Assembly (NCBI RefSeq): GCF_001514305.1
Contig: NZ_KQ949084.1
Location: forward strand, 62,001-126,000
DNA length: 64,000 nt
Direction: 5' to 3'
From: Streptomyces dysideae
GTDB lineage: Bacteria > Actinomycetota > Actinomycetes > Streptomycetales > Streptomycetaceae
Below are positions 2,633-30,855 of the stretch, piece after piece (position 1 is the first letter of the stretch; every line of letters starts with the position of its first letter). The notes beneath the pieces are model-generated. The model was given only the letters and a program-made list of their open reading frames with translations, did no database searches and was not told the origin of the DNA. A program made the translations under genes and the position numbers.

Positions 2633-2646
2633 CGGTTCTCTCAAGT

Positions 2647-2678: not shown

Positions 2679-2690
2679 TCCTCATCTCAA

Positions 2691-2727: not shown

Positions 2728-4230
2728 ATGACGACATCCTCCCAGGAACAAGCCCGGGCCACCCACACCCAGGGCCACCCGCAGCGCTGGCTGATCCTCG
2801 GTGTCATCTGTCTCGCCCAGCTCACCGTGCTGCTCGACAACACCGTCCTGAACGTGGCCATCCCCTCGCTCACCCGCGAACTGGGCGCGGCCACCTCGGA
2901 CATCCAGTGGATGATCAACGCGTACTCGCTCGTGCAGTCCGGCCTGCTGCTCACCGCGGGCAGCGCCGCCGACCGCTACGGCCGTAAGAAGATGCTGATA
3001 ACGGGCCTGGCCCTGTTCGGCGTTGGCTCCCTGGCCGCCGGACTCGCCGACAGCACCACCCAGTTGATCGCCGCGCGGGCCGGCATGGGTGTCGGTGGCG
3101 CGCTGCTGATGACCACCACGCTCGCCGTGGCGATGCAGATCTTCGCGCCCGAGGAGCAGCCCAAGGCCATCGGTATCTGGGCCGCGGTCAACGCGCTCGG
3201 CTTCGCGACCGGTCCGCTGATCGGCGGCTTCATGCTCAACCACTTCTGGTGGGGCGCGATCTTCCTGATCAACCTGCCGGTCGCCGCACTCGGCCTGGTG
3301 GCGGTCGTGTCCCTGGTCCCCGAGTCCAAGAACCCGCAGGGAGACCGCCCGGACCTGCTGGGCGCCGTACTCTCCACGATCGGTATGGGTTCGCTGGTCT
3401 ACGCGATCATCTCCGGCCCCGAGCACGGCTGGACGTCGGGCCGGGTGCCGGCCACAGCGGGCGTCGCGGTGCTGGTCCTGGCCCTGTTCGCGTGGTGGGA
3501 GAGCCGTATCCCGTACCCCATGCTCGATCTGCACTTCTTCCGCGACCGGCGGTTCACGGGCGCGGTCGCGGGTGCGGTGCTGATCGCCTTCGGCATGGGC
3601 GGGTCGCTGTTCCTGCTCACGCAGCATCTGCAGTTCGTGCTCGGATACGGGCCGCTGGAGGCGGGCCTGCGGACCGCGCCGCTGGCGCTGGCCATCATCG
3701 CCCTCAACTTCTCGGGGCTGTCCGCGAAGTGGGCGGCGAAGACGGGGGCGCCGGTGGCCATCGCGCTGGCGATGGTGCTGATGTCGGCGGGGCTGGTGTC
3801 CATCGCGTCGCTTGCGTCTGGTGGTTATGCCGGGACGCTGGTCGGTCTTGTCCTGATCGGGGTGGGGGCCGCGCTGGCCAACCCGGTTATGGCGCACGCC
3901 ATCATGAGTGCGATTCCGCCGGCCAAGGCGGGCGTGGGCGCGGGCATCAACGGGACGTTGGGGGAGTTCGGGAACGGGTTGGGGGTCGCGGTGTTGGGGG
4001 CGGTGCTCAACTCGCGGTTCGCGGCGGCGGTTTCTGTGGGGGCGGCCTCTTTGCCGGCGGCGTTGGCTTCCGCGGCTTCGGGGGAGGAGAGGGCGCGGAT
4101 CTTGGATGGGTTTGCGTCGGGTCTTGAGAGCAGTCAGTTGGTGGGGGCGGGGGCTGTGCTGCTGGGTGGGATGGTGGCGGCTGCGTTGTTGCGGCTCGCT
4201 GAGCGGGCAGACTCCGAGGTGGTTGCCTAA
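2728..4230 (+). CDS. MFS drug efflux transporter, DHA2 (EmrB/QacA) family
   Basis: A 500-residue, 14-helix type transporter. The first helix has LDNTVLNVAIPSL, typical of DHA2 proton antiporters, and loop 2-3 has the motif A form DRYGRKK. The start at 2728 is preferred over upstream in-frame codons because homologues begin just before the GHPQRWLIL segment and because it sits directly after the predicted -10 box. A TetR-family gene follows on the same strand after about 145 bp, the usual layout of a regulated drug pump. The substrate cannot be read from sequence. Codon choice becomes GGG/TTG-rich in the last 400 bp. Confidence 0.88.
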   Translation: MTTSSQEQARATHTQGHPQRWLILGVICLAQLTVLLDNTVLNVAIPSLTRELGAATSDIQWMINAYSLVQSGLLLTAGSAADRYGRKKMLITGLALFGVGSLAAGLADSTTQLIAARAGMGVGGALLMTTTLAVAMQIFAPEEQPKAIGIWAAVNALGFATGPLIGGFMLNHFWWGAIFLINLPVAALGLVAVVSLVPESKNPQGDRPDLLGAVLSTIGMGSLVYAIISGPEHGWTSGRVPATAGVAVLVLALFAWWESRIPYPMLDLHFFRDRRFTGAVAGAVLIAFGMGGSLFLLTQHLQFVLGYGPLEAGLRTAPLALAIIALNFSGLSAKWAAKTGAPVAIALAMVLMSAGLVSIASLASGGYAGTLVGLVLIGVGAALANPVMAHAIMSAIPPAKAGVGAGINGTLGEFGNGLGVAVLGAVLNSRFAAAVSVGAASLPAALASAASGEERARILDGFASGLESSQLVGAGAVLLGGMVAAALLRLAERADSEVVA

Positions 4231-15280: not shown

Positions 15281-15285
15281 AGAAG

Positions 15286-15339
15286 CGGTGGCGGAGGGAT
15301 TCGAACCTTCGGTGAATTGCGCCACACTCGCTTTCGAGG
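15286..15339 (-). repeat. Displaced 3' half of tRNA-Ser(CGA): left attachment-site remnant
   Basis: These 54 bp match 30771-30824 of the intact tRNA-Ser at 50 positions, running from the discriminator base through the T arm, variable arm and 3' anticodon stem to just past the anticodon. Beyond 15339 similarity stops abruptly. This is what site-specific integration into a tRNA gene leaves behind. The four differences break the T arm, so it is no longer under tRNA selection. Confidence 0.8.
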
Positions 15340-16654: not shown

Positions 16655-16679
16655 AGCGGTAGCGGAGGGATTTGAACCC
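16655..16679 (-). repeat. Second tRNA-Ser 3'-end fragment (25 bp)
   Basis: Identical over 25 bp to the 3' end and T arm of the intact tRNA-Ser plus two flanking bases (30769-30793). A GC-rich hairpin lies just 3' on the minus strand (about 16619-16647), as at the other tRNA ends. It probably marks the border of a separate insertion within the island. Confidence 0.65.
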
Positions 16680-17137: not shown

Positions 17138-18028
17138 CTACTCGCGAGGGCCGGACGCCACCGGAGTTGAGGGCGGCCGGGTCGTGGCGGCGGCCCCACC
17201 CACGCGGGCCTCGAAGCACTCGCGTTCGCCGTCGGCCGACGCGGGCCGGAAGCAGGCCCGGACGGTGCTGCCCGGACGGACTTCGGTCATCTCGGTATAG
17301 ATGAAGGTCGCCGCGTCGTCCTTGTTCCTGATGCGTACGCCGTGGGTCGGGCCGTCCGCCGTGACGTCCAGCCGGTCGCCGATCTCGGTCCCCCAGGTCC
17401 GGGCCCAGCTCGCGCCGCACTTCTCGCTGTAGCGCAGCTCGACGTGGGCGCCGGTGGCCGTGCGGTACGAGCCGAGGGTCTCGGGGCCGAGGCCGCAGAT
17501 CAGGCGCATCGGGTCCCGGCCCTCGCAGGCGGCTCCGTGGCACTGGGGAGCGAGGGAGAACGGCACGGAGGCCGACAGCGGTTCGTCCTCCTGAGCCTCC
17601 GAGTCCGGCAGCAGGAAGAACAGCAGGGCCGCAACACCACCGACGATCACGGTGTACGCCGACGCCAGCACCACCAGGAGCCTGCTCCCGCCAAGTCGCC
17701 GCCGCCCGGTCCCGGCGGGCGGCGGCGACTCCTGAGGATGTGGCCGCGGCGACTCGTCCGCGGGAGGGGCGGGTGCGGGGGCCACCGCGCGTCCGCTCCA
17801 GTGCGACTCGGCGATCTCCCACAGGGCCAGCAGTCGCCCGTCCGGTTCGTTCGCGAGCCGGCACAGTTCCCGTACGGCCTGGCGAGGAGGCAGGCTCTTG
17901 CCGTTGAGGTAACGCTCCCACGAGGACTTGCTGTACGCCGTTCGCTCCGCCAGCGCCGCCAGGCTCAGCCCCGCACCGGCCCGCAGCTGCCGCAGCGCCG
18001 CGACCAGCCGGATGTGTTCCGCGGTCAC
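17138..18028 (-). CDS. Membrane-anchored HTH protein with extracellular DUF2690 domain
   Basis: A 296-residue protein started at GTG 18028, which overlaps the TGA of the upstream gene as GTGA (translational coupling). Residues 5-60 are an XRE-like HTH (AERTAYSKSSWERYLNG). A Pro-rich linker leads to one membrane helix (about 115-140). Residues 160-265 look like DUF2690: CHGAACEGRDPM, HVELRYSEKCGASWART, with four cysteines able to form disulfides outside the cell. So DNA binding lies inside and a sensor-like domain outside. Its HTH is closely similar to that of its coupled partner. Probable one-component transmembrane regulator of the divergent wall genes (inference). Confidence 0.82.
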   Translation of the reverse strand: MTAEHIRLVAALRQLRAGAGLSLAALAERTAYSKSSWERYLNGKSLPPRQAVRELCRLANEPDGRLLALWEIAESHWSGRAVAPAPAPPADESPRPHPQESPPPAGTGRRRLGGSRLLVVLASAYTVIVGGVAALLFFLLPDSEAQEDEPLSASVPFSLAPQCHGAACEGRDPMRLICGLGPETLGSYRTATGAHVELRYSEKCGASWARTWGTEIGDRLDVTADGPTHGVRIRNKDDAATFIYTEMTEVRPGSTVRACFRPASADGERECFEARVGGAAATTRPPSTPVASGPRE

Positions 18029-18822
18029 TGGGGCGTCGCCTCCCGCAGGGCCTGCCAGGTGGGCGGGTCGATGACTCCGTTCACGACCAGCCCGTTCTGC
18101 TTCTGCATGCGCTCGACCGCTCGCCGCGTCATCGGGCCGAAAACGCCGTCGATGTCCCCTGGCGCAGTGCCCGCCCGGCGCAACAGGCACTGCGCCTCGG
18201 CCACTTCGAGCCCCACGTGGGTGTTGGACAGGAGGATGTCCGTAGTCCGGCTCAGGCCCGCGTACCAGCGGCCGTCACGCTGCTCCAGCCGACAGGTGTA
18301 GATGACCGGCACCATGGACTCCGACACGGTGGCCGGGGCCGCCGCGACAGCATCGCTGCGGTCACGCGCGAGCTGCGCACGGGCCTCGGTGAGCCGCACG
18401 GCCAGCAGGAGCGCCGCGGAGACGGACAGCACCGTGACCACGGCTCCCGCCATGACCGCGGCGCGCAGGTGACGTCCGTACGGCTGCTGCTCCGCGGGGG
18501 CATGTGCCGGTGTCGCGGAGGGGTTCTCGGGGGCGTCGGTGGTGACCACCCGTCCCTCCGCCCAGTGTTGGGCGGCGATCTCGTGCATCACCAGCAGCCG
18601 GGCCGGATCGTCACCGCCGACGCGGGCCATCGCCTCGACAGCCTCCCGGGGCGGCAGAGCCCTGCCGTTCAGATACCGCTGCCACGACTTCGCGCTGTAC
18701 CCGGTCTTCGCGGCCAGTTGACGCGTGCTCAGTTCGCTGTGGTCCTTCAGTCTGCGCAGTCGCACGATCAACTGGTGGACGTGCGGATGCAGTTCTGCGG
18801 GCAGTGCCTTCCAGCGCGACAC
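18025..18822 (-). CDS. Membrane-anchored HTH protein with extracellular peptidoglycan-binding domain
   Basis: A 265-residue protein. Residues 15-70 are an XRE-like HTH with GYSAKSWQRYLNGRALPPRE, nearly the same as the downstream gene's. One membrane helix spans about 120-142. The outer part ends with a PG_binding_1 domain (about 205-260: AQCLLRRAG, DIDGVFGPMTRRAV, NGVIDPPTWQAL). A regulator whose outside part binds peptidoglycan is an attractive wall sensor. It is transcribed away from the secreted wall genes, with a 423-bp shared upstream region. No phosphorylation domain is present, so signalling would be direct. Confidence 0.85.
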   Translation of the reverse strand: MSRWKALPAELHPHVHQLIVRLRRLKDHSELSTRQLAAKTGYSAKSWQRYLNGRALPPREAVEAMARVGGDDPARLLVMHEIAAQHWAEGRVVTTDAPENPSATPAHAPAEQQPYGRHLRAAVMAGAVVTVLSVSAALLLAVRLTEARAQLARDRSDAVAAAPATVSESMVPVIYTCRLEQRDGRWYAGLSRTTDILLSNTHVGLEVAEAQCLLRRAGTAPGDIDGVFGPMTRRAVERMQKQNGLVVNGVIDPPTWQALREATPQ

Positions 18823-19245
18823 GCTTCCCCCACTCGCGTTCTTGGACCGCCGGCCCGGCCCTGTGCCCCGGTCTCATTCTGCATCAGTTTGCCACGGGGA
18901 TCACAGAGCGGATCCCGCCGCAGCGACTCAGCGGGCGACATCTCCGCAGGTCAGCGCGTGGGATGTCCCGGGATGAGGTCACTTCCGCGCCAGCTGTGGC
19001 AGAACATCACGCCGAACCCGCAGTCTCGTCGCGGAGCCGGCCGGTGCAAACGACCGGCACGCTCAGCGACCGGGCCGGGCTGCCGTGCACGTCGTGCAGC
19101 GCGGGCACCGGCCGTGACGACCGCGCATGACCTCGCTATTCACCTCCCGCTCTGACCGGACAGTCCGGCACCGACAAGGTCTTCCCGGATCAGATTCGAG
19201 GCGAGCAATCCTGCCGCCTCCCTCTCTGAGAAATTAGGAGAACGT
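18823..19245. promoter_or_regulatory. Divergent control region between HTH pair and wall genes
   Basis: No gene is visible in these 423 bp. It must carry the promoters of both the leftward HTH pair and the rightward gene set. CCGGAC-A-GTCCGG at 19156-19168 is a perfect palindrome and a candidate operator. A good ribosome-binding site (AGGAGA) precedes the ATG at 19246. Confidence 0.45.
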
Positions 19246-19797
19246 ATGTCTGTCAAGAGGGCTTTGGTCGCGCTTGCCGCATGCACCGCCCTGGGCTTGA
19301 CGGCGCTGAGCACGAGCCCTGCGTCGGCAAGTATCTCGCAGGGGTACATCTTTGGCACCGGCACGATCACCGATGACTGGGGGGATGAGGGCCCTCTTTG
19401 GGCGGGAGGCAAATACCAGATATCCAACGCGGTTGGTCTCTGGCAGTACGTCCTGTGGGCGGAAGGCGCCAGAGAACAGAACGGCACAGCTTACGACTAC
19501 GCAGACATCGACTGTGATTTCGGCGCCAACACCACCTATGCAACGAAGAAGCTGCAGGCGAGATGGGGCCTGGAGGCAGACGGGGTCGTGGGCAGCAAGA
19601 CCTTCAGTATCGCGGACAACCACCTCCGGGGAAGCACGGGCAAGGTCTACTACTTCGGCAAAGCGCGCGCCGTTACGTTCGTACGTAGCTCTGGTGGCGC
19701 CTACCGCTTTGAGAACCCTGAAGCGGGTGTGGGCTCGAATTTGTGGGAAACGGCAATTTACGACCCCTTCGCGACCTGCTTTGTTCCTGGCGGCTGA
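19246..19797 (+). CDS. Secreted peptidoglycan-binding-like protein 1
   Basis: A 183-residue protein with a Sec signal peptide (cleavage after ASA near residue 29). The centre resembles a PG_binding_1 domain: DIDCDFGANTTYATKKLQ and LEADGVVGSKTF. The C-terminal part is rich in Tyr/Phe and ends with a single Cys near the terminus, matched by the Cys in DCDFG. It is paralogous to 28602-29168 in size, order of motifs and C-terminal Cys, and the two genes bracket the wall cluster. Base composition is lower in GC than neighbours. It probably binds wall glycan or peptide stems; no catalytic residues are seen. Confidence 0.75.
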   Translation: MSVKRALVALAACTALGLTALSTSPASASISQGYIFGTGTITDDWGDEGPLWAGGKYQISNAVGLWQYVLWAEGAREQNGTAYDYADIDCDFGANTTYATKKLQARWGLEADGVVGSKTFSIADNHLRGSTGKVYYFGKARAVTFVRSSGGAYRFENPEAGVGSNLWETAIYDPFATCFVPGG

Positions 19798-19806
19798 ACC
19801 CAGCAG

Positions 19807-20520
19807 CACCTCATCTGCCCGCACCAGCAGTGGGCCGACGCCCAAGGCCCCGGCCCACTGCTCCCGTACAGCCGAGACGGCTCGCCGGATCCCGGTGTGG
19901 TCGTGGTGCCGGCCGCAGGTCTCCATCATCCCGCGGGAGTCGTGGGGAGCCCGACCGCCGACGGACGAATGCTCGGTCGCCCGCTCCCAGTGCACCCGCT
20001 TCACCGTGCACTGGTCGGCGGGCCCGCCCACCCCGACCGTCAAGCAGATCCAGAACTTCCACATGGACGGCAGCGGCTGGCCCGACATCGGCTACAACTC
20101 CCTTGTCGACCGGCAGGGATGGACCTACGAGGGCGTCGGCTTGGAACCATCGCGGCTCGCACACGGTCAATTACAACGCCACCCACATCGGGGTCTGCTT
20201 CATCGGCACCTCGATCCGCTCCCTCTACTACAAGGCGCCGGAGCTCTGCGGCCGCGCCCTCAACGCCACTGACCACAGTGGCCTGCCTGGCGCCCCCACC
20301 GCCTGCCCCGGCAACGACCTGCGCAACTCGGTGCTGGGCGGCATGGACGGCGAGAGCATCCCGATCGTGGTGACTCCCGGCATCGGCTCCGGCGGCCGCA
20401 GCAACATCAGCTCGGTGGTCTCCCAGCAGGGCGCCGTGGACCTCCTCGGGCACACGCCCCGGCTGGCCGAGGACGGCGTCTTCGGCGCGCTCACCCTCGC
20501 CGGTGTGATCCTTCCGGCCG
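19807..20520 (+). pseudogene. Broken PGRP amidase gene (two frameshifts, both ends lost)
   Basis: Three frames in turn match residues about 205-445 of the intact amidase at 24467: RDGSPDPGVVVVP (frame A), then IIPRESWGARPP through GWPDIGYNSLVDRQGW (frame B), then WNHRGSHTVNYNATHIGVCF through CPGNDLRNSVLGGMDG and DGVFGALTLAG (frame C). The switch from B to C is one extra T near 20142 (GGCTTGG where the homologue needs GGCTGG); the A to B switch is near 19916. The first amidase domain and most binding domains are missing. It is a duplicate of the downstream gene that has decayed. Confidence 0.8.
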
Positions 20521-20659
20521 TTTTGCGCCCTCCAGCGGCGGCCGTCCAGCCGATCTTGGTTGCGGCTGGTGGAGCCACCTGCGGCGTTCGGCCGACGGGC
20601 AGCCTCGCCTCGCGTGATCGTCCAAAGCAGCTACACCCCAAGCCGGAAGGTAGACCGTC

Positions 20660-22864
20660 ATGGATGAACTGGTGCTGCGCGCACAGCAGTTCGTGAACAA
20701 CACATACAGCGACGTAATTGGCATGACGCTTGAGGAGAACGGGCAAACCGGCTGGGCCACGATGTACGCGCTCACCCGCGCGCTCCAGTACGAACTCGGT
20801 ATCACCGCCCTGTCCAACAGCTTCGGCCCCACCACCCTGAGCACCCTGAGAGCGGCGTATCCGTCACTCACCGCGGCGACCGTACCGTCGGAGAACTTCG
20901 CGAAGATCGTGCAGTCGGCGCTCTACTGCAAGGGATACGACGGCGGCGACATCGACGGTGTCTGGGGGCCGCGCGTCACCGCGTCCGTGACACAGCTCAA
21001 GCAGGACATGGGCGTCGGCAACGTCGAAGGAACCGGCCTCACCCCGAAGGTGTTCAAGGGCCTACTGAACATGGACCCGTACGTGCTGGTGACCTACGGC
21101 GACCGGGCCGGCAGCTCGGCCGTGCAGACTGTCCAGCGCTGGCTCAACGGACGCTACATCGGCCGCGCCGACTTCTTCGTCATCCCCTGTGACGGTCACC
21201 ACTCCCGCAGTGTTGCCAAGTCGATGCTGTACGCGATCCAGTACGAGCTGGGCATGGCGGACGGCACCGCCAATGGCGTTTTCGGCCCCGGCACCCAGTC
21301 CGGCCTGCGCAGCCACCCCCTGGCTTCCGGTGACCGCGGTGTCTGGGTGTCCCTGCTCACCGCTGCCTTGGTCCTCAACGACCGCCCGGTGGTGTTCACT
21401 TCCTCTTACGACGCACAGGTCGCGGAAGCGGTCGCGCTGTTCCAGTCGTACGTCGCCCTGCCGCAGACCGGCACCGTCGACTTCTCCACGTGGGCGTCGC
21501 TGCTGGTCTCCTACGGCGACCAGTCCCGCCCCGGCACCGCCTGCGACTGCATCACCACCGTCACCCCGGCCCGCGCGCAGGCCCTCCACGACGCCGGATA
21601 CCGGCACGTCGGCCGGTACCTGAGCAACGTGGCCGGCTCCACCCTCGACAAGATGATCAAGCCCGGTGAGCTCGACACCATCGCCGCGGCCGGTCTGAGC
21701 TGCTTCCCGATCTACCAGACCTGGGGCGGCAGCGCCGACTACTTCTCCTACAGCCAGGGCCTTCACGACGCCCACGACGCCATCGTCTGGGCACGGCGAC
21801 ACGGCTTCCAGGACGGCGCCCGCATCTACTTCGCCGTCGACTTCGACGCCCTCGATGGCGAAGTCACCGCCTCCGTCCTGCCGCACTTCCGTGGCGTCCA
21901 CCACGTGATCACGACCTACTCCCGTTACCGGATCGGCGTATACGGCGCCCGCAACGTGTGTCGCCGCGTCTCGGACGCCGGCTACGCCGACGCCAGCTTC
22001 GTCTCCGACATGTCCAGCGGCTTCTCCGGAAACCTCGGCTACGCCTTGCCCGCCAACTGGGCATTCGACCAGATCGCTACCCTCACCGTCGGCTCCGGCG
22101 AGGGCGCCATAGAGATCGACAAGAACATCGCCTCGGGCCGCGACGACGGCGAGCGGACCTTCAACCCCGCCTCTTACACCGAGGCCCTCGACGTCGACAT
22201 CGTCGCCGCCGACCACGAGGCGATGAAGGCCGAGATCCGCACCTACCTCGAGAGTATCGGGGTCCCCGAGACCGGAGGAGACGGCTGGACCGACGACGAC
22301 TGGGGCACCCTCGGCGGCATATCCAACTCCGAGGCCATCGACGCAGTCGTCTCCATGGACTGGCTCTTCACCCGTCTGGCCCGCAACCTCCGGCTGCGGA
22401 AGGCCCTGGTGCAGGCACCAGTGCTGTGGGAACTGCGGCAGTTCAACCCGCTGGACCCCATAGCCGACGAAGCCTTCAAGGCCGGCCTGAAGGACGACTC
22501 CAGCACCGGCTGGGGCCAGATCTACGGCTGGGTCGCCATCGAGGCCCGCAACTACTGCGTGGAGCAGGGCCTCCTCAATGAGCCGCTGCTGACGCTCGAG
22601 GACGACCGCTCCACCGTGTGGACCAGACTCCACGAAGACCCCGAGTACAACATCGAGACCGCGGCCTACCTGACGGTCTACAACGCCTTCCAGATCGATC
22701 TGCCCCGCCCCGGCCTGGACACCTCGGACTCCGACAGCGAACGGATCATCGCCCGTTACAACGGCACCGAGGAAGCCGTCACCGAACAGTACGGCCGGGA
22801 CGTCGGCGGCGTGTACCGCGTCATGGAGAGCTACTACGCCCGCCACCGCGCCGCGGCGAACTGA
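20660..22864 (+). CDS. DUF1906 glycoside-hydrolase-like protein with peptidoglycan-binding domains
   Basis: A 734-residue protein. Residues 1-290 hold peptidoglycan-binding-like repeats (DIDGVWGPRVTASV near 97; NGVFGPGTQSGL near 205; a third near 255-285). Residues 295-495 match DUF1906 (Rv2525c-type TIM barrel): AGYRHVGRYLS, FPIYQTWG, IYFAVDFDA near 389 with the likely catalytic Asp, RIGVYGA, and a final EIDKNIA. Residues 500-734 are unknown and mostly helical. No signal peptide or membrane helix is present, odd for a wall enzyme. Start supported by GGAAGG 8 bp upstream. From memory, this architecture is common in Firmicutes, so wider transfer is possible. Confidence 0.82.
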   Translation: MDELVLRAQQFVNNTYSDVIGMTLEENGQTGWATMYALTRALQYELGITALSNSFGPTTLSTLRAAYPSLTAATVPSENFAKIVQSALYCKGYDGGDIDGVWGPRVTASVTQLKQDMGVGNVEGTGLTPKVFKGLLNMDPYVLVTYGDRAGSSAVQTVQRWLNGRYIGRADFFVIPCDGHHSRSVAKSMLYAIQYELGMADGTANGVFGPGTQSGLRSHPLASGDRGVWVSLLTAALVLNDRPVVFTSSYDAQVAEAVALFQSYVALPQTGTVDFSTWASLLVSYGDQSRPGTACDCITTVTPARAQALHDAGYRHVGRYLSNVAGSTLDKMIKPGELDTIAAAGLSCFPIYQTWGGSADYFSYSQGLHDAHDAIVWARRHGFQDGARIYFAVDFDALDGEVTASVLPHFRGVHHVITTYSRYRIGVYGARNVCRRVSDAGYADASFVSDMSSGFSGNLGYALPANWAFDQIATLTVGSGEGAIEIDKNIASGRDDGERTFNPASYTEALDVDIVAADHEAMKAEIRTYLESIGVPETGGDGWTDDDWGTLGGISNSEAIDAVVSMDWLFTRLARNLRLRKALVQAPVLWELRQFNPLDPIADEAFKAGLKDDSSTGWGQIYGWVAIEARNYCVEQGLLNEPLLTLEDDRSTVWTRLHEDPEYNIETAAYLTVYNAFQIDLPRPGLDTSDSDSERIIARYNGTEEAVTEQYGRDVGGVYRVMESYYARHRAAAN

Positions 22865-22900
22865 CCCCTGCCCACAGCACATCGAGGAAGGACGCACGAC

Positions 22901-23629
22901 ATGACGTACATCAGCAGGCGCATGATGGTGCAGGGCACGGCGGTCCTGGGGCTGGGACTCGCCTCCGGCACGCTCCTCACCGCCCCGACGGCTTCCGCCG
23001 CCGACGTGGCAGCCTCCGCAAGCTCCGCAGGAGCCATGGGCGCCGCGGCGAAGGAACGCCCCGTTTCATTCAACGGCTGGGTGATGGAGGAGCAGGCCGA
23101 CGACGTCTCCACCGTCTGGACCCGCCCCGTCCCTGGCACCGGCCTCACCGTCGCCACCCGCATCGGCGACGTGGAGACCGTTCTGGTCCATCTGCTGCGC
23201 CGCCACCACTACGAGATCGACGAGTTGCGCCCCGGCGACGTCACCGGCTGGCAGCACCCGTCAGGCTTCGACCCGGCGACCCCCGCCTCCAACCTGGCCT
23301 CTGGCACCGCCCTGCGGATCCGCCCCGGCCATTACCCGGCCGACACCGCCGGAGGCTGGTTCCCGGACCAGTTGACCGTGCTCCGCGACATCCTCGCCGA
23401 GCTCGACGGCGTGGTCCGCTGGGGCGGGGACGACAAGCGGCCCGACGAGTCCCTGTTCAGCATCGACGTCACCCCCGGCAGCCCTCGCCTGCCTCGTCTC
23501 GCCGCTGAGCTGCGCGGCTTGCGCGAACACCCGGGCCGTGGAGCCGGCGTCCCCGCCGACCCACTGGCCACCGACCGCCGCGAGGCCGCCGAAGCCCTCG
23601 CCCGCCGGCAGCGAGCAACCGTCCGCTGA
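22901..23629 (+). CDS. Tat-exported protein with a degenerate M15-peptidase-like domain
   Basis: A 242-residue protein. The N-terminus SRRMMVQGTAVLGLGL with ASA cleavage is a twin-arginine signal. Residues 125-190 resemble the LD/DD-carboxypeptidase M15_4 core: SNLASGTALRIRPGHYP aligns with the family's S-x-H-x-x-G-x-A-x-D, and VRWGGDDKRPDESLFSID aligns with the terminal R-WGGD...HFE. At the three zinc positions it has Leu, Arg and Phe instead of His, Asp and His. If the alignment is right it is a non-catalytic wall-peptide binder. It follows the DUF1906 gene by 36 bp, in operon. Family call is inference. Confidence 0.65.
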   Translation: MTYISRRMMVQGTAVLGLGLASGTLLTAPTASAADVAASASSAGAMGAAAKERPVSFNGWVMEEQADDVSTVWTRPVPGTGLTVATRIGDVETVLVHLLRRHHYEIDELRPGDVTGWQHPSGFDPATPASNLASGTALRIRPGHYPADTAGGWFPDQLTVLRDILAELDGVVRWGGDDKRPDESLFSIDVTPGSPRLPRLAAELRGLREHPGRGAGVPADPLATDRREAAEALARRQRATVR

Positions 23630-23821
23630 ACCACCTCAACCAGCCCTGAATGGGTCAGATCAGCAGGTCGAGAACCATGGGAGCTCCAGGGCCGGGTGGC
23701 GGCTTGGCGGCATGAGGGGCACGGGCGGTGAAGAGAACCGGATCGGGGTGCAACCCGAAGGGTGGGGTGGCGCGTAGAGAGCCGTAACCAGAACACCCCT
23801 GATCCTTGGGGGATCTTGACC

Positions 23822-24361
23822 ATGCGCGTCTCACACCGCCGGGCCGCCGTGCGCTGCCTCACCGCTCTCGCCCTCAGCCTCGTGGCCCTGATCGGGTGCA
23901 GCGGTGAGGGCGACGGGCAGGCGGCCGCCACCGCACCCGTGACATCGGCGACTCCTTCCGCGTCTGCCGACGAGACGGCCCCGGACGGCACGTCGGCGTC
24001 GCCCAGTGCGGCCCCCTGGGCCGGTACCAAGCAGTTCGTGCAGATCGAGGACGCCCGGACCGGCGACGGACAGACGTATCTGTCGGTGCGGCCCGCCCAG
24101 AAGAAGGCCCACACCCAGTTCGAGGCATGGGTGATCGTCCCGGGCGAGGGGCCCTACACCGAGGTGCCCATGGCCGAGGACGCCAAGGTGCTGCTGTCGG
24201 TCCCGCTCGGCGACGAGAAGCATGCCTCGTCATACTCCCAGGCCGAGTTCGTCAGCCGGCTGACGGCCCAGTCGTCCTCAGCCCGCTCGCTCGTCGGCTA
24301 CGACCTGAGCTTCGACGGAGAGGGCCGGGTCACCAGGCTGCAGTCGCTGTACACGCCCTGA
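23822..24361 (+). CDS. Putative lipoprotein
   Basis: A 179-residue protein started at ATG 23822. The N-terminus has RHRR-like basic residues and lipobox LIGC near residue 26, then a Ser/Thr/Ala/Pro linker. The remaining 110 residues (from about QFVQIEDARTGDGQTYLSV) form a mixed alpha/beta domain with SQAEFVSRL and ARSLVGYDLSFDGEGRVTRL. It would sit on the outer membrane face, near the wall. No known family. It lies between the M15-like gene and the amidase, 105 bp before the latter. Confidence 0.7.
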   Translation: MRVSHRRAAVRCLTALALSLVALIGCSGEGDGQAAATAPVTSATPSASADETAPDGTSASPSAAPWAGTKQFVQIEDARTGDGQTYLSVRPAQKKAHTQFEAWVIVPGEGPYTEVPMAEDAKVLLSVPLGDEKHASSYSQAEFVSRLTAQSSSARSLVGYDLSFDGEGRVTRLQSLYTP

Positions 24362-24466
24362 ATACGCCTGCCGTCACCGTCGGTCGCACCGCTGCCCTCC
24401 CAGCCTCATGTACTGCCACTGCCCTGCCTGCCGCCGTCAGCCGTCACCAGTCGAAGGAAATCCTGC

Positions 24467-26605
24467 ATGGTCACCATCCTGTCGCGAACCGCCTGGACGC
24501 CCTACACGCGCAATACCGGCACCATGAACCTCCTGGCCCTCGCCTTTTCGATCAACAACGGAATCTCGCTGGGGGCGGCGAAGGATCTCCTGATCGACTC
24601 GCTGGCGACCACACGCAACCTCACGGGAGGGGACTGGACGCCATGGAAGGGGGGCGTCTTCGTTCACCACGCCGGCCCAGGAAGCGTCGACTCCACAGAC
24701 TGCGAAGAATGCCGGTACGAGATCGCCGACATCTGGGCGTCCCATTACCGCGAGTACGGCAACATCGCCTACAACTTCATCGTCTGCCAGCACGGAAACA
24801 TCTTCAGAGCACAGGGCTATATACGGGGCGAGGCAAACGGAGGGTACGCGGAGGGGACCAAGCAAGGCCCGCACCCCGACCCGACCATGGAGGACCGGCA
24901 CATCAGAGTCGACGGCCACGGCCAGGTCGGCCGGAACGAGGCGTTCTACTCGATCCTCGGCCTGCTGCGGCTCAACGACCAGCCCACCGCCGCCATGCGT
25001 TCCTCCATCAAGGATCTCGTCTGGCACCTGCGGACCGAGGTCAGTGACAACCTGCGAGCCGGCAACCTGCTGTACCCCCACCAGCACGACGCCGGCTACA
25101 CCGTGTGCCCCGGAAACCTGACGCCCTACTGCAATGACGGCTCACTGGACCCCGGCGTGGGCGTCGTTCCCGGCCCGGCCATCAACGTCATCTCCCGCGA
25201 GAACTGGGGCGCCCGGCCGCCGACCTCGACGGTACACGTACCGCTCTCCAGCCGTACCGGCTTCTGCGTGCACTACTCGGCCGGCCCGCCCAGCCAGACG
25301 GTGCGCCAGATCCAGAACTACCACATGGACGGCCGGGGATGGCCGGACATCGGCTACAACTTCCTGGTCAACCAGCAGGGATGGATCTTCGAGGGCCGGG
25401 GCTGGACGAATGTGGGCGCCCACGCCCGGGGATACAACACCAGCCACATCGGAGTCTGTTTCATCGGCAGCGACGGGGACGCCACCCAGGCCGCCAAGAC
25501 CGCCATCCGCGCCCTGTTCCTCAAGGCACAGGAGCTGTGCGGCGGCGATCTCAGCGCTACGTACCACAGCGCGCTCGGCTCCACTTCCTGCCCCGGTAAC
25601 GACCTGCGCAGCTGGGTGCAGAGCGGGATGGGCGGAGAGAACGTCCCCATCGAGATCACACCACCTCCGGGCACCGGTTCCGGCCGGAGCGACGTGCGGT
25701 CGGTGGACGCGCAGCAGCGGGCCGTCAACGCACTCGGATACCAGCCCCCGCTGGCCGTCGACGGCGCCTTCGGGCCCCTCACCCTCGCCGGCGTGCAGTG
25801 GCTCCAGCGGACGGTCGGCGTCGAGGACGACGGACTGTGGGGCCCGCTGACCGAGGCCGCCTTCGGCGCCTACATCGGCAGCGGCGGCGGCCGTTCCGAT
25901 GTGCGGACCATCCGTGCCCAGCAGGTCGCCGTGAACGGCATGGGCTACTCCCCCGCGCTGGTCACCGACGGTGTGTACGGTGCCCAGACCAAGGAGGGCG
26001 TGGAGTGGCTCCAGGGCCGGCTCGGCGTCACCGCCGACGGACTGTGGGGCCCGGCGACCGAGCGGGCGTACATGGATCACGCGGGCGACGGTGGATGGTC
26101 CGGTGGCGCCAACACCACCATCCGCACGGTGACGCAGCAGCAGACCGCCGTCAACAGCCTGGGCTACAGCCCGGCCCTCGTCGTCGACGGCGTCTTCGGC
26201 CCGCTCACCTACGACGGGGTGCGCTGGCTCCAGGACCGGGTGGGCGCCCTCGTCGACGGCCTGTGGGGCCCGAACACCGAGTCCTGCTACAACGCCTACG
26301 CCAACGGGGAGGGCCTCGTGGTGGACGGCGTCTTCGGCGCGCGGACCATCGCGGCCCTCCAGCGGGCGATCGGGGCCGAGCCGGACGGAGTGTGGGGCCC
26401 GGAGTCCAAGCGGGCCCTGCAACGCCACCTCAACCGGGTGGCCGACGCCGGCCTCGTCGTGGACGGCGACATCGGCGCAGTGTCCGTGCGGGCCATGCAG
26501 GAGCACCTCAACACGATGACCGGCGCCGGCCTCGACGTGGACGGCGTCTGGGGAGCCGGCACCACCCGTGCCCTGCAGAGGGCCCTCAACCTGGAGAGGT
26601 TCTGA
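24467..26605 (+). CDS. Double PGRP-type N-acetylmuramoyl-L-alanine amidase with five peptidoglycan-binding domains
   Basis: A 712-residue protein. Domain 1 (1-225) is an amidase_2/PGRP fold with zinc ligands visible as FVHHAGP (His68), and HDAGYTVCPG (His207, Cys214). Domain 2 (238-390), entered by ISRENWGARPP, has CVHYSAGPP (His269), YHSALGSTSCPG (His367, Cys375) and so looks active too. Residues 405-705 contain ten DG-x-W/F-G motifs, two per unit, giving five PG_binding_1 domains. It cuts the bond between MurNAc and the stem peptide. There is no signal peptide, although neighbours have them. The next gene starts 1 bp after its stop, so they are coupled. A broken duplicate lies at 19807. Confidence 0.9.
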   Translation: MVTILSRTAWTPYTRNTGTMNLLALAFSINNGISLGAAKDLLIDSLATTRNLTGGDWTPWKGGVFVHHAGPGSVDSTDCEECRYEIADIWASHYREYGNIAYNFIVCQHGNIFRAQGYIRGEANGGYAEGTKQGPHPDPTMEDRHIRVDGHGQVGRNEAFYSILGLLRLNDQPTAAMRSSIKDLVWHLRTEVSDNLRAGNLLYPHQHDAGYTVCPGNLTPYCNDGSLDPGVGVVPGPAINVISRENWGARPPTSTVHVPLSSRTGFCVHYSAGPPSQTVRQIQNYHMDGRGWPDIGYNFLVNQQGWIFEGRGWTNVGAHARGYNTSHIGVCFIGSDGDATQAAKTAIRALFLKAQELCGGDLSATYHSALGSTSCPGNDLRSWVQSGMGGENVPIEITPPPGTGSGRSDVRSVDAQQRAVNALGYQPPLAVDGAFGPLTLAGVQWLQRTVGVEDDGLWGPLTEAAFGAYIGSGGGRSDVRTIRAQQVAVNGMGYSPALVTDGVYGAQTKEGVEWLQGRLGVTADGLWGPATERAYMDHAGDGGWSGGANTTIRTVTQQQTAVNSLGYSPALVVDGVFGPLTYDGVRWLQDRVGALVDGLWGPNTESCYNAYANGEGLVVDGVFGARTIAALQRAIGAEPDGVWGPESKRALQRHLNRVADAGLVVDGDIGAVSVRAMQEHLNTMTGAGLDVDGVWGAGTTRALQRALNLERF

Positions 26606-26606
26606 C

Positions 26607-28502
26607 ATGCGACAGCACGACGACAGCCGCCGCGGCGTCGACGACCCCGCGGCCGAGTCGGCCGGCCGGGGCGCTTCCCGCCGCTCGTTTCTCGCCGCGG
26701 GCACCGCCACCGCCACCGCACTGCTCGCCTCCGGTACCCCCGCGGCCCTTGCCGCGCCGCGCACGGGCGCGGCCACGAGGACGGGGACGGGCTCCGCCGT
26801 GCGCGCCCTGTCCACATTCGCCGCCGTACCAGCGGCCACCAGCGACACGGTGACGGTACCGGCCGGCTTCCGGGCCGCGCCCCTGGCCCGCTGGGGTGAC
26901 GGACTGAGCCCCGCTTCCCCTCGCTGGCGGCCCGCCGGCGGCGGCGCGGCGGCCCAGGCCCTCCAGGTCGGCAGTCACCACCACGGTGTGGAGTTCCTTC
27001 CCCGCGCCGCAGGGCACAAGGGCCTGCTGGTCGTCACCCACGAGTCGGCCGACGAGACAGCCGGCCAGGTGCCCGGCGAGGTGGCGATGGCCGCGCAGGG
27101 AGTGACGGTCGTGGCCGTGGCCGCGGCCGGATCCGACGGTGCGTGGCGCACGGCAGGCTCCCGGTTCAACCGCCGCCTGACCGCCGACACCCGGGTAACG
27201 CCGGCCGGCCCGGCCGCCGAACGTCTCACCGGGGCGGGTGGGCCGGCCCTCCGGGGCGTACTGGCCCCCGGCGCCACCGGGACCACGCCCTGGGGCACCG
27301 TCCTGCTGGCGGAGCGGAACGCCAACGCCTGCTTCGGCACGGACAGCCCCGCCTGGCGGCGCGGCGAGAACGAGCGGCGCTACGGCCTGGCCGCCGGCGG
27401 CCTGGGCAGCCCCTGGCACACCGCGGACGCCCGCTTCGACCTCGCCGACCGCCGGGCGGTGCCCGAGGCGTTCGGCTGGATCGTGGAGCTCGACCCGGAC
27501 GCCCCGGACTCCGTGCCCGTCAAGCGGACCGCCCTGGGGCGCTTCTGGCACGGTGCAGCCACCGTCACCGAGACCCACGACGGACGGGCTGTCGTCTACA
27601 GCACGGACGCCGAGGACGGCGAGTACCTCTACCGCTTCGTCAGCTCCAGGCCGTGGCGCACGCTCCGCGCCCAGGGCCGCAGCCCGCTGGACCACGGCAC
27701 GCTCGCCGTCGCGCGCCTGGCCGACGACGGCTTTGGCCGCTGGCTCCCGCTGGCCTTCGGCCAGGGCCCGCTGACCGCGGCCAACGGCTGGCGTGACCAG
27801 GCGGACGTACTGGTCCGCGCCCGCCTCGCCGCCGACGCCCTCGGGGCCACCGGGCTGGCCGGACCCGAGGGAGTCGCCGTGGATCCGCACAGTGGCTCGG
27901 TCTACCTTGCCCTGGCCGGCAGCAGCGGCCCGGCCGGATGCACCGACTGCGCCGAGGACACCGGGTCCGCCGGGAAGCGGTCGGCGCGGCACAGTCCGTA
28001 CGGCCGGGTGCTGCGGTGGCGCGAGGGGACGGACGGATCAGATGGCGCCGCCGAGGACACGTTCCGCTGGGAGGAGTTCCTGACCGGTGGTGCGGCGGAG
28101 CTGACGGAGCACGGGCGGTTCGCCTGCCCGAAGGGGGTGGGTTTCACTGCCGAGGGGCTGCTGTGGATCTCCACCGGTATCCCCGCCCACGACCTCGGCG
28201 GGCCCGACCCCGTCCACCGGGCCGTCGGCAACAACGCGCTGTTGGCCGCCGATCCCCGCACCGGCACGGTACGACGCTTCCTGACCGCGCCCCGCGGCGC
28301 CGAGGTGACCGGGGTGTCCGCATCCGCCGACGGCCACACCCTGTTCGTCAACATCCAGCACCCCGGACAGGGGACCGCCGCCTCCGCCGACCGTCCACGC
28401 GCCGTCGGCAACTGGCCGGACCACGAGCCCGGGGGCCGCCCGCGCTCGGCCACCGTCGCGGTCCGGGTACCGGCCGGTCCCGAGGCTGCCGCCGGCCAGT
28501 AG
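26607..28502 (+). CDS. Tat-exported PhoX-like (DUF839) protein
   Basis: A 631-residue protein with twin-arginine signal ASRRSFLAAG near residue 27. The body matches the DUF839/PhoX beta-propeller: HHHGVEFLPRAAGHKGLLVVTHES, GTTPWGTVLLAERN, EGVAVDPHSGSVYLA, and SADGHTLFVNIQHPGQG (quoted in pieces). PhoX enzymes are calcium/iron phosphatases. The Cys that in PhoX precedes TTPWGT seems absent (sequence LAPGATGTTPWG), so metal binding may differ. It starts 1 bp after the amidase stop and is certainly in the same operon. A role in removing phosphate from wall teichoic acid or wall fragments is only a guess. Confidence 0.82.
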   Translation: MRQHDDSRRGVDDPAAESAGRGASRRSFLAAGTATATALLASGTPAALAAPRTGAATRTGTGSAVRALSTFAAVPAATSDTVTVPAGFRAAPLARWGDGLSPASPRWRPAGGGAAAQALQVGSHHHGVEFLPRAAGHKGLLVVTHESADETAGQVPGEVAMAAQGVTVVAVAAAGSDGAWRTAGSRFNRRLTADTRVTPAGPAAERLTGAGGPALRGVLAPGATGTTPWGTVLLAERNANACFGTDSPAWRRGENERRYGLAAGGLGSPWHTADARFDLADRRAVPEAFGWIVELDPDAPDSVPVKRTALGRFWHGAATVTETHDGRAVVYSTDAEDGEYLYRFVSSRPWRTLRAQGRSPLDHGTLAVARLADDGFGRWLPLAFGQGPLTAANGWRDQADVLVRARLAADALGATGLAGPEGVAVDPHSGSVYLALAGSSGPAGCTDCAEDTGSAGKRSARHSPYGRVLRWREGTDGSDGAAEDTFRWEEFLTGGAAELTEHGRFACPKGVGFTAEGLLWISTGIPAHDLGGPDPVHRAVGNNALLAADPRTGTVRRFLTAPRGAEVTGVSASADGHTLFVNIQHPGQGTAASADRPRAVGNWPDHEPGGRPRSATVAVRVPAGPEAAAGQ

Positions 28503-28560
28503 CCGGATGGCGCGCGTCCAGCACTCCCGCTCACTGACACAACATCAGCAAACAGCGGTC

Positions 28561-28578
28561 GGAACGCTCGGACGTTCC
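28561..28578. promoter_or_regulatory. Palindrome upstream of the second binding protein
   Basis: GGAACG-CTCGGA-CGTTCC is a perfect inverted repeat with 6-bp arms, 23 bp before the ATG at 28602. It is a candidate operator; it does not match the palindrome at 19156. Confidence 0.4.
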
Positions 28579-28601
28579 ACCGGGAAACGGAGAATCGTCT
28601 C

Positions 28602-29168
28602 ATGCCAGGAATCCGTCGCCTCCTCGTCGCAGGCGCCACCGCCGCGCTGGCCCTCGGCGTCGTGATGAGCCCCAGCCCCGCCACCGCCGATGTGAGCAAG
28701 GGGTACATCGACGCGGACCCCGGAGCCCAGAACGACTTCGAGGACGAGGCCACCTTGTGGCCGGGAAGCCCGTACTGGAACAGCAACGCCGTCGGCGTGG
28801 TGCAGACCATCCTGCATGCGGAGCGCATCCTCGACACGACTGACGTCGACTGCGCCTACGGAACCACCACCGCGAACGCCGTCAAAACCCTGCAGCGCCG
28901 CCTGGGCTTCACCGGAAGCGACGTCGACGGCGTCGTCGGCCCGAAGACCTGGGCCAGACTGGACAACCGCCTGGTCGTAGGCCCCGTCTACAACGACAGC
29001 CAGGAATGGATCCACTACCGGACCACGGGCGACTGGACCCGAACCAGGGTGTTTCTGCGCGCCCGGGTCAGCGACGGCACCTACCTCTTCCGCTACTGGG
29101 GCCTCGACGCACAATCCGAATGGCGCCAGGCCCTCTACCGCCCACTGGGAGGTTCGGTGTGCCGGTGA
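28602..29168 (+). CDS. Secreted peptidoglycan-binding protein 2
   Basis: A 188-residue protein with a Sec signal (cleavage after ATA near residue 30). The middle is a clear PG_binding_1 domain: DVDCAYGTTTANAVKTLQRR and DVDGVVGPKTWARLDN. The C-terminal 65 residues are Tyr/Trp/Arg-rich and end SVCR, giving one Cys to pair with that in DCAYG. The shared opening (GYI, then an acidic stretch with LWPG/LWAG) shows it is a paralogue of the protein at 19246. It has its own candidate operator and closes the wall cluster. Confidence 0.82.
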   Translation: MPGIRRLLVAGATAALALGVVMSPSPATADVSKGYIDADPGAQNDFEDEATLWPGSPYWNSNAVGVVQTILHAERILDTTDVDCAYGTTTANAVKTLQRRLGFTGSDVDGVVGPKTWARLDNRLVVGPVYNDSQEWIHYRTTGDWTRTRVFLRARVSDGTYLFRYWGLDAQSEWRQALYRPLGGSVCR

Positions 29169-29838: not shown

Positions 29839-30279
29839 TCAGACGCGGACCCATTCCACGGGGCTGCTGCGGCCTGTGGATGCTGCGTGGCAGAGCTTCG
29901 GAATGTGGGAACCGTCGGTGGAGGCGACCTTCATCGGCCCGCCCGAGCAGGCTGCTGTGGCGACCACGAGCGCGTCCACGACGTTTTCGTGACCGTCCAG
30001 ACCGGCATCCTCCAGTAGTTCTGCCGCGCGGTCGGCGATGAGCTCGGTTGCGGGGATGACGGTGAGCCGGGAGCGGAGCCAGCGCAGGTGGTTCGCGGCT
30101 TGTCCGGTGCGGCGGACTTCGGCGATGCTGACCGTGGAGATCGCGGCCGCGTACCCCTCGGCTTCGGCGACCTTGAGCATCAGTGTCATTCTGCGGTCCT
30201 GGTCGGCCAGGAGAGACAGCGGCTGTGCATCAAGGACGAGGAGGGCGCGGGGGAACGCCGGGGCTACTCGCCGTGCCAT
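29839..30279 (-). CDS. PIN-domain toxin (VapC-like)
   Basis: A 146-residue PIN nuclease-type protein. Acidic residues expected for the metal site are present: LLVLDAQPL near the start, STVSIAEVRR, VVDALVVATA, and a late VASTDGSHI. PIN toxins of TA pairs usually cut tRNA or other RNA. Its start overlaps the antitoxin gene by 16 bp. The pair is minus-strand, next to the right island border, as addiction modules often are. Confidence 0.85.
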   Translation of the reverse strand: MARRVAPAFPRALLVLDAQPLSLLADQDRRMTLMLKVAEAEGYAAAISTVSIAEVRRTGQAANHLRWLRSRLTVIPATELIADRAAELLEDAGLDGHENVVDALVVATAACSGGPMKVASTDGSHIPKLCHAASTGRSSPVEWVRV

Positions 30280-30512
30280 GTCCGGCGGGCCTCCTCGATT
30301 TCCTCGGGAGTGAAGGAGCCGTGCTCGTCCTCGTACGCCTCGACGATCTCCCTGGTTTTGGTCAGGGCGAGGGCGTGTTCGACGGCGTCGGAGACGAAGC
30401 GCGAGAAACCCCGGGTGCCTGTGCGGGCTTCGACCTCGCGGGCAAGCGATCTGGGGATGGTGACGGACTTCTTGACAGTGGTCTCGTCCGGAGGCGCGTG
30501 CTCGCTAGCCAT
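30264..30512 (-). CDS. RHH/CopG-type antitoxin
   Basis: An 82-residue protein. KKSVTIPRSLAREVEARTG and FSRFVSDAVEHALAL form the ribbon-helix-helix fold for DNA binding, and the acidic tail EEIEEARRTWHGE would cover the toxin. It overlaps the PIN toxin gene and should autoregulate the pair. Confidence 0.85.
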   Translation of the reverse strand: MASEHAPPDETTVKKSVTIPRSLAREVEARTGTRGFSRFVSDAVEHALALTKTREIVEAYEDEHGSFTPEEIEEARRTWHGE

Positions 30513-30764: not shown

Positions 30765-30770
30765 TGAGAG

Positions 30771-30855
30771 CGGTAGCGGAGGGATTTGAACCCTCGGTGA
30801 CTTGCGCCACACTCGCTTTCGAGGCGAGCTCCTTCGGCCGCTCGGACACGCTACC
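30771..30855 (-). tRNA. tRNA-Ser (anticodon CGA)
   Basis: Acceptor stem GGTAGCG/CGCTACC with discriminator G, long variable arm, and T arm with GGTTCAAATCC. The anticodon stem CTCGC/GCGAG encloses CTCGAAA, so the anticodon is CGA (30819-30821). CCA is not encoded. This gene served as integration site of the island to its 3' side; the tadA gene is 5' to it. Confidence 0.95.

What the first reader, a model, noticed from the sequence alone, without database searches (positions are those of the whole stretch)
17138..29168. Candidate undescribed system: membrane wall-sensor regulators plus a peptidoglycan-binding and -cutting gene set
Within 12 kb there are two membrane HTH proteins with outer PG-binding and DUF2690 domains, two secreted PG-binding proteins, a DUF1906 enzyme-like protein with PG-binding domains, an M15-like protein, a lipoprotein, a double amidase with five PG-binding domains, and a PhoX-like protein. 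I know of no named system with this set. It could remodel the wall in development, digest foreign walls, or act as an attack/defence module.
Basis: partly seen in the sequence, partly recalled or inferred. Interest (0 to 1): 0.85.

Follow-up and report, generated by a model that had tools for sequence, protein, structure and literature searches.

The report
Island-borne wall-cutting toxin locus, Streptomyces
A 14-kb DNA island in a Streptomyces carries a relative of a known enterococcal cell-wall-dissolving bacteriocin protein, refitted with a lysozyme-like cutting end, next to wall-binding enzymes and membrane wall-sensing regulators; it is probably a weapon against other bacteria, built from modules that mostly travel separately.

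Summary
The gene set is real. It lies in a 14.1-kb island bounded by a perfect 25-bp repeat of the 3' end of tRNA-Ser (16655 and 30769). Of 40 other genomes with both flanking genes on one contig, 35 have at most 6 kb there.
The set is not one conserved system but modules. Module A: membrane HTH-PG-binding plus HTH-DUF2690 regulators (paired in 31 of 31 loci), divergent from a PG-binding gene in 18. Module B: the DUF1906 protein followed by the Tat-exported M15-like protein (35 of 36 genus matches; 76 of 80 wider loci). A and B rarely meet (window plus 2 of 38 other genus loci).
Residues 1-501 of the DUF1906 protein are 38% identical to the protein in the BacA position of the enterococcal Bac41 bacteriocin locus. 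On this trunk sit at least three C-terminal families. The window's models as a lysozyme/Tse3-like muramidase (Z 12.9), not the TelC domain published for relatives. Its M15-like partner has lost all three zinc ligands.
Best reading: an island-borne bacteriolysin/wall-toxin locus. No activity was tested.

The parts
16655..16679 (.). Left direct repeat: perfect 25-bp copy of the tRNA-Ser 3' end (attachment-site-like)
30769..30793 (.). Right direct repeat: 3' end of tRNA-Ser(CGA); the tRNA is 30770-30855 on the minus strand
17138..18028 (-). HTH_31 - TM - DUF2690 membrane regulator; GTG start overlaps the upstream TGA
18025..18822 (-). HTH_31 - TM - PG_binding_1 membrane regulator
19246..19797 (+). 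Secreted PG-binding protein, divergent from the regulator pair
   Evidence: signal peptide read by eye
19807..20507 (+). Amidase pseudogene (frame changes near 19912 and 20141, truncated), 54-63% identical in pieces to the 24467 gene
20660..22864 (+). BacA-trunk protein: no signal peptide seen, N-terminal PG-binding-type domains, Rv2525c/DUF1906 barrel, C-terminal lysozyme/Tse3-like domain (residues about 503-734)
22901..23629 (+). Tat-signal protein of M15/LAS fold with the three zinc ligands replaced (L, R, L); companion gene
23822..24361 (+). Lipoprotein, no family; no homolog found in the DUF1906 loci searched
   Evidence: lipobox read by eye
24467..26605 (+). Amidase with two Amidase_2 domains and five PG-binding stretches; no signal peptide seen
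26607..28502 (+). PhoX-family protein with Tat-like signal, start 1 nt after the amidase stop
   Evidence: start and signal read by eye
28602..29168 (+). Secreted PG-binding protein, 37% identical to the 19246 protein
   Evidence: signal peptide read by eye
29839..30512 (-). VapC/VapB-like pair between the block and the tRNA (PIN hit below Pfam's cut-off; VapB by eye)

Best explanation
A mobile-island bacteriolysin (wall-toxin) locus. The 734-aa protein is a BacA-family trunk: N-terminal wall-binding domains and an Rv2525c-type barrel dock it on peptidoglycan, and its C-terminal lysozyme/Tse3-like muramidase (candidate catalytic residue E591) cuts glycan. The bifunctional amidase, also without a signal peptide, would be a second wall enzyme with a role like BacL1's. 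The Tat-exported M15-fold protein with a dead zinc site binds wall peptides or the toxin outside the membrane and most likely protects the producer (immunity) or positions the toxin. The two membrane HTH regulators sense wall fragments or the secreted PG-binding protein through their outer domains and control the divergent operon. Shown here: genes, homologies, folds by prediction, gene pairing, island borders. Inferred: enzymatic activity, export route, immunity, sensing, target.
For: Trunk 38% identical over residues 1-501 to the 726-aa protein encoded next to annotated bacL2, a holin and a 595-aa protein with an Amidase_5 domain and three SH3 domains; the trunk gene and the gene after it are identical on pMG2200, a plasmid reported to carry Bac41-like genes (PMC8532689 passage). 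Bac41 activity is rendered by BacL1 and BacA (PMC9951850 passage). C-terminal model (pLDDT 92, pTM 0.90): Tse3 Z 12.9, rmsd 4.4, 184 residues, above lytic transglycosylases at about 10. C-terminal clusters of 95, 37 and 10 members plus two singletons among 144. Companion gene: 35 of 36 genus matches lie just downstream, 76 of 80 wider loci, 0 of 40 random regions. Zinc triad complete in 7 of 76 companions, one more undetermined. L045: an Amidase_2 domain is fused to the trunk in one ORF, between a divergent HTH-DUF2690 gene and a companion gene. Sensor module: partner in 31 of 31, divergent PG-binding gene in 18 of 31. Island.
Against: No BacL1-type partner or holin was recognised; the small multi-TM gene found after the trunk gene in L382 and in many actinobacterial relatives is absent here. 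The C-terminal type follows the trunk tree closely (5 changes, least possible 3), so swapping is rare and lies mainly in Bacillota. The companion is fairly well conserved (35-67% identity), unlike a typical fast-changing immunity protein. Seven trunk-protein matches, some of them fragments, in this one genome could suit a house role. No export route for the two leaderless proteins is known. In the loci looked at, the regulators are usually without the toxin gene. Foldseek's own E for the muramidase match is only 1.8e-3.
Confidence: 0.6

Rival explanations
1. Own-wall remodelling: the enzymes and binding proteins act on the producer's wall in growth, sporulation or lysis, switched on by wall-sensing regulators.
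For: Secreted PG-binding proteins and wall-sensor-like regulators; Rv2525c itself is a Tat-secreted protein proposed as a peptidoglycan hydrolase (title of the 2014 study as cited in PMC12419801); several trunk copies in some genomes.
Against: Patchy: 23 of 150 genomes including fragments; island location; relatives abundant on plasmids (529 records); homology to a bacteriocin component; two key enzymes show no signal peptide.
Confidence: 0.2
2. Chance assembly: an integration hot spot at tRNA-Ser gathered independent wall-related modules (sensor pair plus secreted protein; trunk plus companion; amidase plus PhoX) with no joint function.
For: Modules A and B meet in the window and only 2 of 38 other genus loci; PG-binding genes not enriched at trunk loci outside this genome; L172 carries an amidase-PhoX pair without a trunk gene.
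Against: The meeting is more than chance (2 against 0.18 expected without the window, P 0.015; post hoc). L045 has an HTH-DUF2690 gene, an amidase fused to the trunk, and a companion, in the window's order, at 31-48% identity.
Confidence: 0.14
3. Phage-derived lysis cassette kept as a relic.
For: PHROGs endolysin matches for six of ten proteins scanned; phrog_15213 matches trunk residues 1-520 (E 1.5e-130); an amidase pseudogene is present.
Against: Only one phage record of 50,697 matched at E 1e-20; no phage structural match of weight among the ten proteins scanned (one PHROG filed under head and packaging is itself called an endolysin); the best 34 viral-contig trunk hits are 37-44% identical, and I did not check whether these contigs are true phages.
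Confidence: 0.05

Closest known systems
Bacteriocin 41 (Bac41) of Enterococcus faecalis, component BacA
   Same: Trunk homologous from residue 1 (38% over 501 residues), no signal peptide seen in either, a second wall hydrolase in the locus, variable C-terminus, a short gene downstream, mobile DNA.
   Different: C-terminal domain unrelated by profile comparison; partner is an Amidase_2 enzyme, not Amidase_5/SH3; no holin recognised; downstream gene is a Tat-exported M15-fold protein, not a small membrane protein; added HTH sensors, lipoprotein and PhoX.
PGBD - Rv2525c - prok-TelC proteins with 3TM-CCDN and a secreted VanY protein (eLife 2025, PMC12419801, section 31 read)
   Same: Same N-terminal domain types in Actinomycetota, same VanY/M15-type secreted neighbour, same proposed use in conflict.
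   Different: Window C-terminus is lysozyme/Tse3-like; no 3TM gene; VanY-like protein without zinc ligands. The terms Bac41, BacA, bacteriocin, Tse3 and muramidase do not occur in its main text.
Tse3 (T6SS muramidase effector) and lytic transglycosylases
   Same: Best fold match of the C-terminal domain (Z 12.9 and about 10), conserved Trp-Glu and SSTG motifs.
   Different: About 17% identity; no T6SS involved; fused to a wall-binding trunk.
M15/LAS fold: VanX, VanY, LdcB, ChiX, Hedgehog
   Same: Fold matches Z 4-5.7; Pfam M15_4 hits 12 of 42 relatives.
   Different: Zinc ligands lost in most members, the window included.

Membership tests
Bac41 bacteriocin locus | BacA-type trunk from residue 1 | tested here: met
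   38% over 1-501
Bac41 bacteriocin locus | BacL1-type partner (Amidase_5 plus SH3 repeats) | tested here: not met
   L382 partner has these; the window has Amidase_2 x2 plus PG-binding domains
Bac41 bacteriocin locus | Holin in the locus | tested here: inconclusive
   None among the named proteins scanned; not every small ORF was scanned
Bac41 bacteriocin locus | Small multi-TM gene directly after the trunk gene (immunity position; function recalled) | tested here: not met
   36-bp gap to the Tat-signal gene in the window; present in L382
Bac41 bacteriocin locus | Bacteriolytic activity and immunity | not testable with these tools
   Needs the bench
PGBD-Rv2525c-TelC conflict family | PG-binding domains plus Rv2525c barrel | tested here: met
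PGBD-Rv2525c-TelC conflict family | C-terminal domain of the type-2 family (fits the published TelC motif; TelC itself not compared) | tested here: not met
   hhalign probability 0.1% between the window type and type 2
PGBD-Rv2525c-TelC conflict family | 3TM neighbour | tested here: not met
   No multi-TM ORF between the genes in the window locus L050
Lysozyme superfamily, Tse3-like | Fold | tested here: met
   Z 12.9, rmsd 4.4, 184 residues; Foldseek E 1.8e-3 only
Lysozyme superfamily, Tse3-like | Catalytic glutamate | tested here: inconclusive
   E89 of the domain (E591) nearly invariant; not superposed on the Tse3 active site
M15 peptidase | Fold | tested here: inconclusive
   Z up to 5.7 to LAS enzymes and Hedgehog; Foldseek best E 0.6; PF13539 hits 12 of 42 relatives, not the window protein
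M15 peptidase | Zinc ligands H, D, H | tested here: not met
   Window L, R, L (columns set by the ChiX alignment); complete in 7 of 76 homologs by text pattern, one more undetermined
tRNA-integrated genomic island | Direct repeats of the tRNA 3' end | tested here: met
   25 bp perfect
tRNA-integrated genomic island | Absent at the site in relatives | tested here: met
   35 of 40 genomes have at most 6 kb between the flanking genes
tRNA-integrated genomic island | Integrase gene | tested here: inconclusive
   None seen among the proteins scanned; not every ORF scanned
One conserved system of all listed genes (reader) | Whole set co-occurs elsewhere | tested here: not met

The most novel reading that the evidence does not exclude
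The BacA trunk is a cross-phylum delivery scaffold for a polymorphic wall-toxin family (Actinomycetota and Bacillota), bearing lysozyme-like, TelC-like and further tips; in actinomycetes a zinc-dead, Tat-exported VanY-fold protein serves as companion or immunity, and some loci have been placed under membrane repressors that sense peptidoglycan directly through their own PG-binding domains.
Probability: 0.33. Interest if true: 0.75.

Novelty: new variant of a known kind. Interest (0 to 1): 0.56.

Why it matters
It links three things that no paper found in my searches links (open-licence library only): the Bac41 bacteriolysin, the Rv2525c-TelC conflict proteins and a widespread actinomycete gene pair. 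If right, many orphan 'glycoside hydrolase domain-containing' genes in Streptomyces and in 529 plasmid records are candidate wall toxins with testable immunity partners. The HTH-PG-binding/HTH-DUF2690 pair with its divergent PG-binding protein is a simple, conserved candidate for direct transcriptional sensing of the wall.

Tried and rejected
Whole-set conservation: rejected. General enrichment of PG-binding genes around trunk loci: not found once this genome is left out; Fisher test of loci without the window P 0.09. First idea, that Tat242 pairs only with one C-terminal type: wrong, because wider flanks show it with both types. Strict segregation of the small TM gene by C-terminal type: seemed so for F2 against F7/F34, not upheld, because single-linkage joins type 1 and type 2 members. 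Frequent tip swapping: not supported in Actinomycetota; 5 changes against a least possible 3. TelC identity of the type-2 tip rests on a published motif description (H, D, D+6, C-terminal R) read by eye against my alignment, not on a structure; PDB sequence search with it found nothing useful, nor with the window tip. TelC did not appear in the fold search, which excludes nothing. Defence profiles: two weak HTH hits only (E 9e-4 and 2e-3). Rfam at gathering scores: only the tRNA-Ser. A type-10-secretion idea (holin plus M15 enzyme, prompted by the ChiX hit; recalled) was dropped: no holin recognised and a dead zinc site. The content of Kurushima 2016 (C-terminal region of BacA and BacI define immunity types) is recalled; the paper is not held; I saw its title in reference lists and a short account in PMC8532689.
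Full report
Anatomy. The window lies in a 10.8-Mb genome. Corrections: the HTH-DUF2690 gene starts at 18028, its GTG overlapping the TGA of the HTH-PG-binding gene (sequence), so the two are probably translated together. The block's other genes read rightward from 19246 to 29168. Gaps of 36 bp (trunk gene to Tat gene) and 1 bp (amidase to PhoX, start read by eye) point to pairs. A broken amidase copy sits at 19807-20507.

Island. The 3' end of tRNA-Ser(CGA) at 30769-30793 recurs perfectly at 16655-16679, and a 56-bp stretch recurs at 93% at 15284-15339. The genes on either side, a sigma factor (13714) and a tadA-like deaminase (30916) (named from general knowledge of their sequences), are 16.4 kb apart here. 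Among 40 other genomes with both on one contig, 29 have at most 2.5 kb, 35 at most 6 kb, and five have 8-116 kb. I saw no integrase among the proteins scanned.

Module B. In 150 genomes (relatives, mostly genus) the DUF1906 protein matches 23 and the Tat-signal protein 22. By coordinates, 35 of 36 Tat-protein matches lie downstream of a DUF1906 match on the same strand, at most 1.4 kb from it; the exception is G089:C1:2885753. By profile, 38 of 39 fetched genus loci hold one (profile trained on these loci), 0 of 40 random regions. Of 80 loci from named genomes, the best 80 of 470 relatives of a capped list, 76 hold it on the same strand just downstream (missing in L284, L291, L293, L296). The two sets overlap: some loci are the same genome. 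The named set reaches Rothia, Actinoplanes, Actinokineospora, Actinomadura, Nocardioides, Amycolatopsis, Arthrobacter, Nocardia and one Bacillota. The small multi-TM gene between them was detected in 56 of 97 type-1 and 12 of 15 type-2 loci that could be typed and had the Tat gene, of 119; the window lacks it.

C-terminal domain. Profile comparison finds no relation between the window-type tip and the type-2 tip. The window tip, modelled from 49 sequences (pLDDT 92.2, pTM 0.90), matches Tse3, a type VI muramidase effector, best (Z 12.9, rmsd 4.4, 184 residues), then MltC, MltF, MltE and Slt at Z about 10; Foldseek gives Tse3 E 1.8e-3, probability 1.00. The tool warns that helical folds can reach Z 13 by arrangement alone; the consistent lysozyme-superfamily list and the conserved Trp-Glu and SSTG motifs weigh against that. 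Type 2 carries a histidine and an aspartate pair six apart, as the eLife paper describes for TelC (matched by eye), so it is probably the published TelC type.

Companion. The Tat protein modelled at pLDDT 93.6 resembles Hedgehog, LdcB, ChiX and VanX (Z 4.9-5.7); Foldseek alone was weak (best E 0.6). Pfam M15_4 hits 12 of 42 relatives, not the window protein. At the three zinc positions, set by the profile alignment to ChiX, the window has L, R, L; the complete H, D, H set is read by text pattern in 7 of 76 homologs, one more is undetermined. It is a mostly dead peptidase, so binding is likelier than cutting.

Link to Bac41. Plasmids hold 529 records with the trunk at E 1e-40, 380 of them Enterococcus. 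One E. faecalis locus (L382) reads: 595-aa protein with Amidase_5, three SH3 and a lysozyme domain, bacL2, holin, unknown, trunk protein of 726 aa, 180-aa multi-TM protein. The last two genes are on pMG2200 at 100%, which a review passage names as carrying Bac41-like genes (PMC8532689). A second paper's passages state that Bac41 has six ORFs, that BacL1 and BacA give the activity, and that BacL1 has a triple SH3 repeat (PMC9951850). The window protein is 38% identical to this trunk over residues 1-501 and then diverges. In 25 of the 60 listed enterococcal records (115 in all) the match stops at nucleotide 1640-1643 of the query, a natural exchange of tip and downstream gene; the review passage reports types with specific immunity factors downstream. 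The names bacL1, bacA and bacI for ORFs in L382 are recalled; only bacL2 is annotated.

Tip families and tree. Among 144 trunk proteins with a usable tip (146 trunks), tips fall into clusters of 95 (window type), 37 (type 2), 10 (with the E. faecalis one) and two singletons. The E. faecium tip matches type 2 (probability 98.6%); the E. faecalis one matches neither type 1 nor type 2. On a trunk tree of 129 different rows the window type needs one change, all labels together five (least possible three; shuffled mean 35), so exchange is real but rare and lies mostly in Bacillota (quick method).

Module A. In 31 of 33 stretches around HTH-PG-binding matches (window, L045, L046 and 30 fetched) the HTH and PG-binding domains are in one ORF; all 31 have a second HTH gene close on the same strand and 18 have a divergent PG-binding ORF within 1.5 kb (the same count at a tenfold stricter cut-off). 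In 40 random 19.5-kb regions only one holds any PG-binding ORF by the same profile. Some loci have another exported-looking protein there instead, and some neither. Modules A and B meet in the window, L045 and L046: 3 of 39; without the window 2 against 0.18 expected, P 0.015, post hoc. Several fetched loci are cut short by contig ends. Two more trunk loci of the purine-gene site (L042, L055) have a DUF2690 gene 10-11 kb away, outside the counted distance. L243 has an HTH-DUF2690 gene right beside its trunk gene.

A telling fusion. In L045 an Amidase_2-type domain (E 4e-5, just under Pfam's cut-off; 44% identical to the first amidase domain of the window gene) and the trunk with its Rv2525c domain are one 727-aa ORF without a long tip, divergent from an HTH-DUF2690 gene and followed by a companion gene. 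This ties amidase, trunk, companion and sensor in a second, distant locus. I saw it while checking this report; it moved the best explanation from 0.58 to 0.60 and chance assembly from 0.17 to 0.14.

Other genes. The amidase is in 7 of 150 genomes at E 1e-25; in G082 (L172) it sits next to a PhoX homolog. Both amidase domains of the window gene keep a His near the start and a CPG motif near the end, read as zinc-binding from general knowledge of Amidase_2. The lipoprotein found no homolog in the other 118 trunk loci.

Literature. Searches for DUF1906 with peptidoglycan (7 papers), DUF2690 (1), Rv2525c (33, of which 25 listed), Tse3 with related terms (13), the HTH/PG-binding combination (0 in two searches), Enterococcus/DUF1906 terms (2), BacL1/BacA (8), Bac41/BacI (1,069, mostly noise, 12 listed) and Bac41 with DUF1906/Rv2525c/TelC (2) showed no paper that links Bac41 to the Rv2525c-TelC proteins or describes the muramidase-tipped form. 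Of these I saw listings, except: eLife 2025 PMC12419801 (section 31 and search passages), PMC9951850 and PMC8532689 (passages) and PMC5821083 (passages; it names TelC in the text and Bac41 in a reference title only). The library lacks most subscription journals.

Verdict. A real, island-borne gene set whose core is a new, muramidase-tipped branch of a known kind of wall toxin, joined to a conserved wall-sensor module. All functional steps remain inferred.

Noticed in passing
L045 (G001:C515) 2015-4195: One ORF fuses an Amidase_2-type domain to the trunk with the Rv2525c domain, no long tip, beside an HTH-DUF2690 gene and a companion gene.
   Followed up: partly
window 15284-15339: A second, 93% copy of 56 bp of the tRNA-Ser region left of the island border, suggesting an older insertion stacked at the same site.
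   Followed up: partly
L042 and L055: Trunk-gene loci beside genes that look like purN-purH carry PG-binding proteins; the L055 one tested has a Ser/Thr kinase domain plus PG-binding, another possible wall-sensor type.
   Followed up: partly
L175 (G089:C1:2885753): The only listed genus match of the M15-like protein without a DUF1906 neighbour.
   Followed up: no
L156, L157, L158, L159, L161, L169: Three HTH_31 genes in a row around the HTH-PG-binding gene; a 330-aa gene follows in L158, L159 and L161, and one lies nearby in L157.
   Followed up: no
E. faecalis plasmid records: In 25 of 60 listed rows the match ends at nucleotide 1640-1643 of the trunk gene, a natural exchange of tip and downstream gene.
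   Followed up: partly
MT836466.1 7309-8907: Trunk homolog (34%) in an unannotated 10-kb phage-labelled record from human faeces.
   Followed up: no
G000 (7 matches): The window's genome holds several further trunk genes or fragments, some near PG-binding genes (L042, L043, L044).
   Followed up: partly
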